Assembly: GCA_025642075.2 (NCBI GenBank) | Contig: JAODUO010000187.1 | Location: 1 to 64,000 of the forward strand | Origin: Ridgeia piscesae | Lineage: Eukaryota > Annelida > Polychaeta > Sabellida > Siboglinidae | Direction of reading: 5' to 3' | Length of the DNA stretch: 64,000 nt | Shown: positions 388-60,157 of the stretch, piece after piece | Position numbering within the stretch: position 1 is the first letter of the stretch | Layout of the letters: every line of letters starts with the position of its first letter | Translations under genes and position numbers: made by a program | Notes under the pieces: generated by a model | What the model was told of the DNA's origin: nothing | Seen by the model: the letters and a program-made list of their open reading frames with translations, nothing else | Databases searched by the model: none

Positions 388-3300
388 CTGAGTCTGTTGA
401 TTGACCCAGTTCTGCAGCAGGTCACTGACACTGACCACAGCTGACCCTCTCTGTCCAGTCAACTCAGACACGTCCTGCACCAAGGCTCTCTGCTGGACCT
501 CCCAGTACTCTTGCTACAAGCACGACAGGCGAAACACTGCTACAGTGTAAGTGTAGTGACACTGCTACAGTGTAAGTGTAGTGACACTGCTACAGTGTAA
601 GTGTAGTGACACTGCTACAGTGTAAGTCTAGTGACACTGCTACAGTGTAAGTGTAGTGACACTGCTACAGTGTAAGTGTAGTGACACTGCTACAATATAA
701 GTGCAGTGACACTGCTACAGTGTAAGTGCAGTGACACTGCTACAGTGTAAGTGCAGTGACACTGCTACAGTGTAAGTGTAGTGACACTGCTACAATATAA
801 GTGCAGTGACACTGCTACAGTGTAAGTGCAGTGACACTGCTACAGTGTAAGCGTAGTGACACTGCTACAGTGTAAGTGCAGTGACACTGCTACAGTGTAA
901 GTGTAGTGACACTGCTACAGTGTAAGTGTAGTGACACTGCTACAATGTAAGTGTAGTGACACTGCTATAATGCATGGCGACATGCCGAGTAAAAAGTGCT
1001 AGTGTCATCTGCAAACAGAATAATATGAAGCAGTTGTGACACTTCACATATGTCATTTATGTATAAAATTAATAGTACTGGGCCCAGGATTGATCTTTGT
1101 GGGACTCCACACTTGATATTATTTAGCTCTGAATTACTGTTGTTATAGCACACATACTGACTATGGTCTGTTAAATAACTTTTAATCCAATCCAGTGCCA
1201 AACCCCTTATTTCATAGCATTGTAACTTACTTAGCAGTATTTTATGATCAATGGTGTCAAATGTTTTCTTCAGATCAATAAAGACCCCAATAGTGCTTTC
1301 TTGTTTACCTGTTGCTGAAGTTATCTTTTCAACAAATTCAGTTAACACTTCTGAAGCCTATCGGTCAATATGTGATGATTTTCAATGAAAGACATAAACC
1401 TTTTGTTAAAGATTTCTTCAAGTATTTTAGAGAATTGGGGTAACAGGATACAGGTCTATAGTTAGAAAATTGGAGATGATCTCCTGATTTAAAGACAGGA
1501 ATAACCTTTGTTGTTTTCATGTCATTTGGAAATAATCCTATAAAAGTGTGAGTTAGCAGTTTTACAACTTGCTTTATTACATGTTTAACAGTTTTCATGC
1601 CGATTTCGTTGTGTCACTGACACAATTTCGATTACTTCTTTCTCAGTAACTGGATATATATATATATATATATATATATATATATCATATATATAATATA
1701 TATATCATATATATATATATGTATATATATATATATATGTATATATATATATATATATATATATATATGTATATATATATATATATATATATACATATAT
1801 GTATATGTATATGTATATATATATATATATATACATATATGTATATGTATATGTATATATATATATATATATATATATATATATATATATATATATATAT
1901 TCTTTCTAATAGGTTTGGATCATTATTACTAACCACATAAGTACTATTGTCACACAGAAAGAAAACTGACATATGATCCGTAGCATTGCTTAAAACAATG
2001 CCACACATTTTGTTTCTGCATAGCTCAGAACAGAAAATGTTATCTATTACAGTTGCAATTGTGCCTGTTATTCTTGTTGGCTGGTGATCAAGGGATACAG
2101 TCCAGAAACAATTGATCAAGGAAATGTTTCGACTCAGTTTGCTCTTCACAGTGCTGACTCAAGAGTCAAGACCCATATCTCTTTCAAACAGGTATGAGTA
2201 TATCTCGGACACTGGTAGCTGGCAGGTCAGTTGGCCATGCTAACATGAGGAAATGAGCACGAGATGAAGAGACTGACCTTGAGCCACTGTAGAGCCTGGT
2301 GAGTCGCCTGGCGCAGGACGCTGAGGGACGGGAATGTGGAGTGTGTGATGTCATGACGCAGCTCCACCAGCCACTGCGGCAGACCCAGCTAGCCACAGAC
2401 ACACGGCGGTGGTCAGTGGATCATGAGACTCGTGGTTTGTTTGAGAGAGTTGCTACTACATGTAATGACTGGCTATGCTTCAAAATTACCCTCTCAGTAC
2501 AATAAACCAGATTGTCTAAAAAGAAGTCAGTACAACAAGATAGTTATATTGTATGCAAATATTCATTAATGCAGGCTGCAATGTGACAACGAGGTGTGGT
2601 AAAATAAAACCACAGTCGACTGAATCTGGCTAACAATGGACTGAAACTATAAGCATTACCTTATAGAATGTATCTAAAAACTTAGTACATATTTCATGAT
2701 TATATATATATATATATATATATATATTACACATAAAATTATTATATAGCGAATTATGTTTCATATATTAGTCATTAAGATATCAAAGTAGAATTACAAA
2801 GCAAATCATTTATAAACTTATCAAGATAACTTCAGACATTAGTTGTGTAGCTTTAGACAGATGTGTTCAAATTGGTGTGATCAGAAAGTGTTAACACAGT
2901 CAGGAAGTCCTCACCTCTTCAGCAATGGCGTGTACTGGCAGGGGATAGAACTTGGTCTGTCGCTTCTCTGTCAGGAGGTTCACAAACCTGTGTGGCATGC
3001 ACAAACACTGTCACACTGTCACTTATGAACGCTGTACAGACGACACAGACACAGTGACAGTGGAGGACCACAGCCACACGTCACTGCTGGTGTCAGACTG
3101 GACGTGTCGCTGGACGAACATCAGAAATAGAAAATTGGCTGAGATTATGCAACATCAACACAGATGGTTGAAACTATGATGGAAAAAAAATATTTTTTAA
3201 GACTTTAGAATGTCAATGAATCAATAAATGTAGGGCATCCGAGTCAATATGACAACATTTTTGTAGTATTGTAGATTTAGTAATTTCACTTCTCTGTAGG

Positions 3301-59800: not shown

Positions 59801-60157
59801 AGATAAGTGTTTCCCCGGATTTCAAAAGTCAAAGCAAATTGATAGTGAATATATTCCACAGACTAACAAGCGGCGACCGCGGGTAAATACAAACAAATTA
59901 ATAAAATCACTTGCTGTTTATCTAACTCCTTAGCAACTGCTTCTATATAGAAAGCCATCGTGTTTCCTCAAGAGTAAGATGTTCTCGGAGAGTGCTGAAC
60001 TCACGTGACTGCGGAGTGCTAAACTGCGAGAGTACGTAACGCAATAGTTACCCACTGATGTCGTCAACACAGCCGCCAGGCTTAGCGTTAGCAGGGCCCA
60101 GGTTTTATCTGGAAGGTAAGAGGGAGAAAACGTGCAAAACGAGAAAACAACATGCAT
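53813..60157 (-). CDS. Signal peptide-CUB-LDLa-transmembrane receptor-like protein
   Basis: Five minus-strand exons: 60052-60157, 58386-58579, 57531-57762, 55167-55298, 53813-54099; 316 residues, phases all fit. Signal peptide: WALLTLSLAAVLTTSV at about 20-35. One CUB domain is split over exons 2-3 (CGGFLKLTETSGSFQSPNYP, HCIWQL, QCVDFVE, RECFSSTP, WVWVRFKTNYRGSNSGFKAIW). One LDLa module is in exon 4 (MRCANQECISLAYRCDDYND) with extra Cys (CGCDGPGC). One membrane helix lies at about 227-251 (LLVGLAIGVGIFLLVFFGVG), followed by a basic KRRAENEYRKQ and a short Pro/Ser-rich tail. It is a single-pass type I surface protein resembling the CUB-LDLa part of NETO/LRP12-type receptors; the ligand is unknown. 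The first exon could instead begin at an acceptor-like CTTCCAG within it, with an upstream start. The exon 4 acceptor is copied about 55 times upstream. Confidence 0.85.
54100..55166. other. Intron 4 of the CUB/LDLa gene with a TA-centred hairpin
   Basis: A 50-bp inverted repeat (about 54770-54820 and 55062-55130; shared TGACGTTTCTG-GCATGCGCGATAAATGT) flanks a (TA)n tract at 54893-54959. The layout is that of a MITE-like foldback element with an expanded TA core. The rest is unremarkable. Confidence 0.75.
55299..56790. repeat. 27-bp minisatellite copying the CUB/LDLa exon 4 acceptor, about 55 copies
   Basis: On the minus strand each unit is CTGTATCTACCTGTACCCAC plus AG/ACTGT, identical to the sequence across the exon 4 acceptor (exon first base 55298). 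Being 27 bp and stop-free, most units read in frame as DCLYLPVPT. Several nearest copies have CACAA instead of CACAG, losing the acceptor. Occasional 26- and 28-bp units shift the frame. Confidence 0.96.
56791..57530. other. GT and TA microsatellites in intron 3 of the CUB/LDLa gene
   Basis: (GT)n at 56797-56875, (TA)n at 56880-56920, and long TA-rich palindromic tracts at 57136-57305. No coding sequence was seen apart from the unused read-through of exon 3 to a TAA at 57424. Confidence 0.85.
57763..58385. other. Intron 2 of the CUB/LDLa gene
   Basis: AT-rich intronic DNA with a short (CA)n at about 58083-58100. Nothing else was recognised. Confidence 0.7.
58612..58905. repeat. (GTGTGC)n microsatellite
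   Basis: Nearly 300 bp of GTGTGC with three TATGAGTGTGCGC or TTGGCT interruptions, starting about 32 bp from the CUB exon 2 acceptor. It gives long Cys-Val-Arg and Thr-His-Ala frames that are not genes. Confidence 0.96.
58906..60051. other. Intron 1 of the CUB/LDLa gene, unique part
   Basis: AT-rich sequence without tandem repeats, mobile elements or recognised exons. Confidence 0.65.

What the first reader, a model, noticed from the sequence alone, without database searches (positions are those of the whole stretch)
388..60157. Minisatellites seeded on splice junctions across four or five unrelated genes
In this window tandem arrays repeatedly contain or abut a splice site. Units that include the junction itself: LAS1L exon 3 acceptor; EED exon 4, 6 and 7 donors and exon 9 acceptor; CUB/LDLa exon 4 acceptor. 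Arrays starting at or within about 15 bp of a junction: NACHT-gene exon 3, 10, 11 and 13 donors and exon 5 acceptor; VWA exon 2 donor. The exon half of the junction is copied too, so these are duplications of boundary DNA, not intronic repeats that drifted near. Some arrays (for example 1-296, 45128-45410, 49855-50155) are not at junctions, so the link is not absolute. A bias in how duplications start (R-loops, nicks at transcribed junctions) or in which survive (a spare splice site is tolerated) are both possible. I know of no described class like this.
Basis: partly seen in the sequence, partly recalled or inferred. Interest (0 to 1): 0.9.

Follow-up and report, generated by a model that had tools for sequence, protein, structure and literature searches.

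The report
Splice-junction minisatellites in a vent tubeworm
In the hydrothermal-vent tubeworm Ridgeia piscesae many tandem-repeat arrays sit on or next to exon-intron junctions, some made of copied junction DNA, like the "mirages" described in amphioxus, and this makes it possible to ask why repeats start at splice sites.

Summary
The window is contig 187 of the vent tubeworm Ridgeia piscesae: its EED gene model is 435/435 aa identical to a Ridgeia protein.

With splice sites fixed by protein homology, 12 of 20 intronic minisatellites in the window lie within 30 bp of a junction or overlap it (3.05 expected, p=5e-6). It holds in two genes on other contigs, chosen beforehand: PRPF8 10/15 and clathrin heavy chain 6/12 within 25 bp. 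Pooled, 27 of 47 lie within 25 bp. Random seeding predicts 7.8, GC-matched seeding 10.7.

"The exon half is copied" holds for some arrays only: 11 of 47 cleanly, 18 of 47 by homology. In the window it is clean for EED exons 4, 7 and 9, weaker for EED exon 6 and LAS1L, undetected for the NACHT arrays.

This matches amphioxus "mirages", tandem duplications of exon-intron boundaries (PMC3087553, PMC3902484). I found no annelid report in the searches listed. Why junctions are hit is open. I favour a modest initiation bias plus neutral survival, because the exon-proximal splice copy stays intact. Splice sites with arrays are not weaker than others.

The parts
36425..37297 (-). 31-bp minisatellite on EED exon 4 donor (exon 37274-37465); unit = 24 exon nt + 7 intron nt, ~27 intronic copies
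33336..33992 (-). 34-bp minisatellite on EED exon 7 donor (exon 33964-34097); unit = 29 exon + 5 intron nt; array majority differs from the exon copy at 3 synonymous sites
32201..32678 (-). 69-bp minisatellite on EED exon 9 acceptor (exon 32090-32248); unit = 21 intron + 48 exon nt
   Evidence: one place found in the genome
34679..34855 (-). 31-bp degenerate array at EED exon 6 donor (exon 34847-34938)
   Evidence: (p=0.005)
31008..31692 (-). 24-bp array near EED exon 10 donor (exon 31713-31786), no exon half detected
3593..4822 (-). 45-bp array at LAS1L exon 3 acceptor (exon 3434-3577), diverged exon half
   Evidence: p=0.02
534..967 (-). 25-bp array at LAS1L exon 6 acceptor (exon 388-513), weak exon half
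   Evidence: p=0.06
55293..56797 (-). 27-bp array at the acceptor of the LDLa-domain exon (first exon base 55298); overlaps 6 exon nt; not in the statistics (gene model incomplete)
10238..10515 (+). 23-bp array 21-25 bp inside intron after NACHT-gene exon 3 (donor 10216)
15122..15708 (+). 26-bp array 23 bp before NACHT-gene exon 5 acceptor (15732)
23617..24132 (+). 30-bp array 1 bp inside intron after NACHT-gene exon 10 (donor 23615)
24576..24774 (+). 22/44-bp array 4-15 bp inside intron after NACHT-gene exon 11 (donor 24571)
26934..27177 (+). 42-bp array filling most of NACHT intron 13 (11 bp from donor 26922); same unit as 25950-26664 in intron 12
43282..43376 (+). GAGAGG microsatellite 4 bp inside intron after VWA exon ending 43277
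53105..53824 (-). 17-bp array straddling the stop codon (ORF end 53816) of an ORF with a hydrophobic, transmembrane-like stretch (by eye): coding edge, not a splice site

Best explanation
These are mirage-type minisatellites: short stretches of DNA at exon-intron boundaries are tandemly duplicated and then expand by ordinary minisatellite turnover inside the intron. The copy touching the exon keeps its original splice signal, so the decoy copies end up in the intron and are neutral. Shown: arrays are about 2.5 to 3.4 times as frequent at boundaries as GC-matched or random seeding predicts, at donors and acceptors alike; the exon half is copied in some arrays; splice signals next to the exon are preserved in the clean cases. 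Inferred: the excess comes mainly from where duplications start (transcription-linked or sequence-linked slippage at the boundary), not from any benefit of a spare site, and splicing ignores the decoys.
For: Window: 12/20 minisatellites within 30 bp or overlapping against 3.05, p=5e-6; microsatellites 1/14 against 1.20. Genes chosen beforehand, placement within own intron: PRPF8 (43 aligned exons) 6/15 overlap against 0.11 and 10/15 within 25 bp against 2.83; CLTC 5/12 overlap (4) or abut (1) against 0.03 and 6/12 within 25 bp against 0.90. Pool of 47 arrays and 202 junctions, random seeding: within 25 bp 27 against 7.84, p=1e-5 (simulation floor); replication genes alone 16/27 against 4.67. 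GC-matched: 27 against 10.65, p=5e-5 (floor). Stable for TRF score cut-offs 80-500 and when any one gene is left out. 18/47 units match both halves of their own junction better than any of 200 other junctions, and none of these 18 resembles the opposite junction of its intron within the top 1%. Clean exon-half copies 11/47 against 4.04, p=0.0013. Of the 27 boundary arrays 12 are at donors, 15 at acceptors. In the 11 clean arrays decoy GT/AG bases are intact in 299/312. In 5 of 6 clean donor arrays 7 nt or more of native intron remain; in the sixth (EED exon 7, 5 nt) the next base restores GTGAGT. Annotated Ridgeia EED uses the exon-proximal copies throughout.
Against: 20 of 47 arrays are not within 25 bp of a junction. 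In the window alone overlaps are not significant under the generous null (3 against 1.90, p=0.29). VWA shows no effect (0/4). Microsatellites, meant as the control, show an excess within 10 bp in the pool (4/25 against 0.79, p=0.007; not at 30 bp, 4 against 2.16, p=0.16) and in PRPF8 (3/7 against 0.15), so part of the effect may be general repeat-proneness of boundary sequence. Short direct repeats are also commoner near acceptors in array-free DNA (3.28 times shuffled, interior 1.47). Two gene-model-free motif tests on C187:64001-264000 were flat or nearly so (one acceptor comparison p=0.046), but equally flat in the positive controls. Over all 17 arrays tabulated, six of them degenerate, decoy site bases are intact in only 581/718.
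Confidence: 0.68

Rival explanations
1. Survivorship alone: duplications start at random everywhere in genes; exon-internal ones are removed by selection, and boundary-straddling and intronic ones survive, so arrays merely appear to hug exons.
For: Explains preserved exon-proximal splice signals and an array straddling a stop codon (53105-53824), where there is no splice site. In the window alone the overlap class is compatible with it (3 against 1.90).
Against: The null used already allows straddling at the full intronic rate, and the excess remains: 14 against 4.81 overlapping or abutting, 27 against 7.84 within 25 bp. 13 arrays lie 1-25 bp inside introns where about 3 are expected (difference of the two expectations); survivorship gives no reason for intron edges to beat intron interiors.
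Confidence: 0.2
2. Sequence-driven slippage: boundary DNA (GT-rich donor flanks, T/G-rich acceptor tracts, higher GC) is intrinsically repeat-prone, and splice sites are incidental.
For: GC is higher in the first and last 25 intron bases (0.46, 0.45 against about 0.35 inside); GC matching lowers the enrichment from 3.4 to 2.5 times; short repeats are enriched near acceptors; microsatellite excess within 10 bp.
Against: Excess persists after GC matching (27 against 10.65, p=5e-5); donor-side straddling stretches show little extra short-repeat density (1.70 against 1.47 interior), yet donors carry 12 of 27 boundary arrays.
Confidence: 0.35
3. Selection keeps duplicated splice sites because spare sites help splicing of the intron.
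For: Decoy GT/AG bases are intact in 299/312 in the 11 clean arrays.
Against: Junctions with arrays are not weaker than those without (donor 8.95 against 8.23, p=0.19; acceptor 8.59 against 8.17, p=0.73). Decoy use would insert repeat copies that mostly shift the frame (inference). Over all 17 arrays site bases (581/718, 0.81) are no better kept than exon columns (0.94) and about as well as intron columns (0.79).
Confidence: 0.06
4. Intron birth: these introns arose by tandem duplication of an exonic AG/GT segment and the arrays are the birth scar, as proposed for amphioxus globins.
For: PMC3087553 proposes intron gain from mirages (passages read); PMC2812944 reports novel introns from tandem repeats at exon-intron boundaries in human duplicated genes (passages read).
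Against: For 18 of 18 arrays with both halves the unit resembles one junction only; the opposite junction never ranks in the top 1% of 202. Intron positions were not compared with other species.
Confidence: 0.04
5. Assembly artefact: repeat copies added or misplaced by the assembler.
For: Copy numbers cannot be checked here; the fetched CLTC and C187 stretches contain runs of N (2500 and 5000 bases).
Against: An assembler of genomic reads does not know splice sites (inference); arrays hold variant copies; amphioxus mirages are reported with RT-PCR showing normal splicing (PMC3087553).
Confidence: 0.04

Closest known systems
Amphioxus mirages (Adh3, globins BflGb6/BflGb9, troponin C, PGBD5; PMC3087553 and PMC3902484, passages read)
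   Same: Minisatellite-like tandem duplications that span an exon-intron boundary, at donors or acceptors; unit lengths overlap (Adh3 10-72 bp per PMC3087553; here 22-69 bp in clean cases); regular splicing reported there and, here, annotated for EED.
   Different: Annelid instead of cephalochordate; arrays of up to about 50 copies (PRPF8); many arrays here abut the junction without a detectable exon half; somatic length instability reported at Adh3 is untested here.
Variable internal tandem repeats at exon-intron boundaries of human genes in segmental duplications (PMC2812944, passages read)
   Same: Minisatellite-size tandem repeats at exon-intron boundaries.
   Different: There: recent primate paralogs, copy-number variation between paralogs, repeats partly kept in exons and novel introns formed. 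Here: conserved single genes, copies lie in existing introns, no novel intron seen.
Intron gain by tandem duplication of AG/GT proto-splice sites (Rogers 1989, cited in PMC3087553; not read)
   Same: Tandem duplication of DNA around AG/GT.
   Different: Here existing introns carry one-sided arrays; no new intron was identified.
Ordinary intronic minisatellites, e.g. earthworm metallothionein intron 1 (PMC12783039, passages read)
   Same: Annelid, intronic, minisatellite-size units.
   Different: The passages read describe repeats inside the first intron and make no claim of junction-spanning units.

Membership tests
mirage (amphioxus type) | tandem repeat unit contains the exon-intron boundary with both halves | tested here: met
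   Met for 11/47 arrays cleanly and 18/47 by homology; not met for the NACHT arrays, which should not be called mirages.
mirage (amphioxus type) | minisatellite-size units in tandem | tested here: met
   Units 22-69 bp in the clean set.
mirage (amphioxus type) | either donor or acceptor boundaries | tested here: met
   Clean set: 6 donor and 5 acceptor arrays; 12 and 15 of the 27 within 25 bp.
mirage (amphioxus type) | regular splicing not disturbed | tested here: inconclusive
   ORFs continue through exon-proximal copies and the annotated EED agrees; no RNA data.
mirage (amphioxus type) | length polymorphism, somatic instability | not testable with these tools
   One assembly only; one place found for the EED exon 9 array.
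mirage (amphioxus type) | found in cephalochordates (taxonomic scope in the passages read) | tested here: not met
   Host is Ridgeia piscesae, Annelida. A difference in scope, not in structure.
intron birth by tandem duplication | homology between donor-side and acceptor-side boundaries of the intron | tested here: not met
   For 18 of 18 arrays with both halves the opposite junction is not in the top 1% of 202 junctions.

The most novel reading that the evidence does not exclude
A mutational process in this tubeworm, perhaps across siboglinids, preferentially starts tandem duplications within about 25-30 bp of exon-intron boundaries, at donors and acceptors alike, littering introns with decoy splice sites that the spliceosome ignores. 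The same process would have arisen independently in amphioxus and points to a boundary-linked DNA lesion (for example transcription- or R-loop-linked nicks).
Probability: 0.35. Interest if true: 0.78.

Novelty: new member of a known kind. Interest (0 to 1): 0.55.

Why it matters
It takes boundary-spanning minisatellites of the amphioxus type into a distant phylum. It also measures their excess against explicit nulls in genes that were not picked for their repeats. That makes two open questions testable in one genome: whether splice junctions are mutational hotspots for tandem duplication, and how the spliceosome chooses the exon-proximal site among dozens of near-identical neighbours. The latter is hardest to explain at acceptors, where the authentic site is the last one.

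Tried and rejected
Organism guess of amphioxus (from the mirage literature) was rejected by the EED identity to Ridgeia. A model-free test of splice-motif orientation at array edges and one of splice-motif content of units showed next to nothing on C187:64001-264000 (best: acceptor orientation p=0.046; unit content z 0.9 and 1.7), but equally little in the positive controls, so both are uninformative; those 200 kb (65 minisatellites, 67 kb) stay untested for lack of gene models. The spare-site hypothesis was tested by splice-site strength: no support. Longer or purer junction arrays were tested: spanning arrays are slightly less homogeneous (91 against 95% match, p=0.027) and equally long (p=0.89), so no sign that a selected exon copy keeps arrays uniform. 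Intron birth was tested by comparing units with the opposite junction: no support.

Rows dropped before counts: window arrays 50637-50710 (AGC-like) and 57134-57329 (AT-like); three doubtful CLTC exons (19739-19758, 31224-31395, 34017-34090 of the stretch) dropped from the pooled tests but kept; the LDLa gene left out of all statistics. The robustness run includes the AGC row, hence 48 arrays. The set of 11 clean arrays was defined after looking (self-shift identity at the junction). Two CLTC arrays counted apart (5978-6483, 6649-8411) share one junction and unit.
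Full report
WHAT THE WINDOW IS. My EED gene model from the window is 100% identical over 435 residues to a Ridgeia piscesae protein, NP493_187g00037; the next best is the annelid Paralvinella at 71%. The window is contig 187, bases 1-64000, of a 628-Mb assembly in 4875 contigs. Ridgeia is a siboglinid annelid. 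The published Ridgeia genome paper (PMC9921365, passages read) says that tandem repeats were predicted with TRF; I saw no junction analysis in those passages, and that paper describes an assembly of different size (574.9 Mb).

GENE MODELS. A fifth gene has an LDLa domain (Pfam E=1.6e-5), but its model is incomplete and it is left out of the counts.

THE ARRAYS. TRF lists 115 rows in the window. After merging and removing simple repeats, 20 minisatellites lie in introns of the four genes. Direct reading shows junction DNA copied outright. At EED exon 4 the unit is CCTGTCAGCATGCAGAACATCAAA|gtgagta, the exon part encoding the end of the exon; at exon 9 the unit carries 48 exon bases after the acceptor. 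At EED exon 7 the exon copy and the array majority differ at 3 of 29 bases, all synonymous by my reading of the frame, which suggests that the array was copied from the exon and that the exon stayed under selection (inference). In PRPF8 (4 of 36) the differences are not all synonymous.

STATISTICS IN THE WINDOW. Placing each array uniformly inside its own intron, 12/20 have an edge within 30 bp of a junction or overlap it (3.05 expected, p=5e-6), against 1/14 microsatellites (1.20 expected). A harsher test, in which each array is collapsed to one unit and seeded anywhere in the introns with straddling allowed, gives 11/20 within 25 bp against 3.16 (p=4e-5), but only 3 overlaps against 1.90 (p=0.29).

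REPLICATION IN GENES CHOSEN BEFOREHAND. I chose PRPF8 and clathrin heavy chain for conservation and length, before seeing their loci. PRPF8 (contig 12, 43 aligned exons, 2148 identities in a 2343-column alignment): of 15 intronic minisatellites 6 overlap a junction (0.11 expected), 9 are within 10 bp (1.19) and 10 within 25 bp (2.83). Clathrin (contig 303, the part up to residue 1347 of 1675): 4/12 overlap and 1 abuts (0.03 expected for both), 6/12 are within 5 bp (0.21). Two more genes were tried, POLR2B and EEF2, but their searches did not complete. Pooled seeding test: 27/47 within 25 bp against 7.84 (p=1e-5); replication genes only 16/27 against 4.67. With GC matching: 27 against 10.65 and 16 against 6.20 (both p=5e-5). 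These p values are simulation floors. The result holds for TRF thresholds 80-500, for periods of at least 15 or 20, without the foldback element, and with any one gene left out; VWA alone shows 0/4.

HOW OFTEN THE JUNCTION ITSELF IS COPIED. Compared with 200 other junctions, 28/47 units match their own junction best. In 18 of these both halves are matched. Of the other 10, seven are trivial because the array begins inside the 25 intron bases of the query, and three (CLTC 21434 and 24375, VWA 45901) match intron bases only. A strict self-shift test leaves 11 clean cases, against 4.04 expected by random seeding (p=0.0013). None of the 18 resembles the opposite end of its intron.

MECHANISM. In the clean donor cases the second copy starts 5-18 bases into the intron and the native donor hexamer is kept; in acceptor cases 5-35 native intron bases remain before the exon. 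In the clean arrays decoy GT/AG bases are intact in 299/312; over all 17 arrays tabulated, 581/718. There is thus no sign of purging. Splice sites with arrays are not weaker than others. Donors and acceptors are hit about equally (12 and 15), which argues against anything specific to the 5' splice site. The excess is not limited to straddling arrays: 13 lie 1-25 bp inside introns where about 3 are expected, which survivorship does not predict. Sequence proneness explains part: GC is higher at intron ends, short repeats are commoner near acceptors, and microsatellites too are in excess within 10 bp (4/25 against 0.79). My best reading is a modest initiation bias at boundaries plus neutral survival. 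The excess is shown; its cause is inferred.

WHAT IS KNOWN. PMC3087553 (passages read) describes "mirages": minisatellite-like duplications of exon-intron boundaries in amphioxus Adh3 and globin genes, with similar structures at other loci, RT-PCR suggesting regular splicing, and proposed intron gain. PMC3902484 (passage read) adds troponin C and PGBD5. PMC2812944 (passages read) reports variable tandem repeats at exon-intron boundaries of human genes in segmental duplications. Canestro 2002 is not held. Searches for annelid or tubeworm cases returned none that fit: tubeworm+intron+minisatellite 0 papers, siboglinid+minisatellite 0, tandem repeat+exon-intron boundary+annelid 4 (one opened, PMC12130307, passages not relevant; three seen as listing only), minisatellite+splice junction+intron+invertebrate 4, of which the earthworm metallothionein paper (PMC12783039, passages read) describes intronic minisatellites without a junction claim. 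Other searches: and 78 (50 papers, 10 listed, none opened). The library lacks most subscription journals, so absence there is weak evidence.

VERDICT. Real, replicated, and a new member of a known kind in a phylum for which I found no report; not a categorically new class. The strongest open claim is that exon-intron boundaries are initiation hotspots.

Noticed in passing
window 11327-15105: Inverted blocks of ACTATGGTTTACTATGGT-type repeats about 2-3 kb apart inside NACHT intron 4, like a foldback transposon; two of the 20 counted arrays are its arms.
   Followed up: partly
window 25950-26664 and 26934-27177: The same 42-bp minisatellite lies in the introns on both sides of NACHT exon 13 (218/235 identical).
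   Followed up: partly
window 53105-53824: A 17-bp array straddles the stop codon of an ORF with a hydrophobic stretch, a coding edge without a splice site.
   Followed up: partly
window 45994-46109: Two-copy diverged duplication (45994-46041 and 46062-46109) spanning the acceptor of VWA exon 46084-46386; not listed by TRF.
   Followed up: partly
L024:7253-7945: PRPF8 intron after the 26th aligned exon carries an array whose unit contains a copy of that exon's acceptor and start, although it lies downstream of the exon.
   Followed up: partly
L002-L021 (C187:64001-264000): 65 minisatellites cover 67 of 200 kb, a very high density.
   Followed up: no
window 968-1357, minus: Reverse-transcriptase ORF (Pfam RVT_1, E=1e-15) abutting array 534-967 in LAS1L intron 5.
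   Followed up: no
window 61300-64000: 52-bp array running to the end of the window and continuing to C187:64512; no gene assigned.
   Followed up: no
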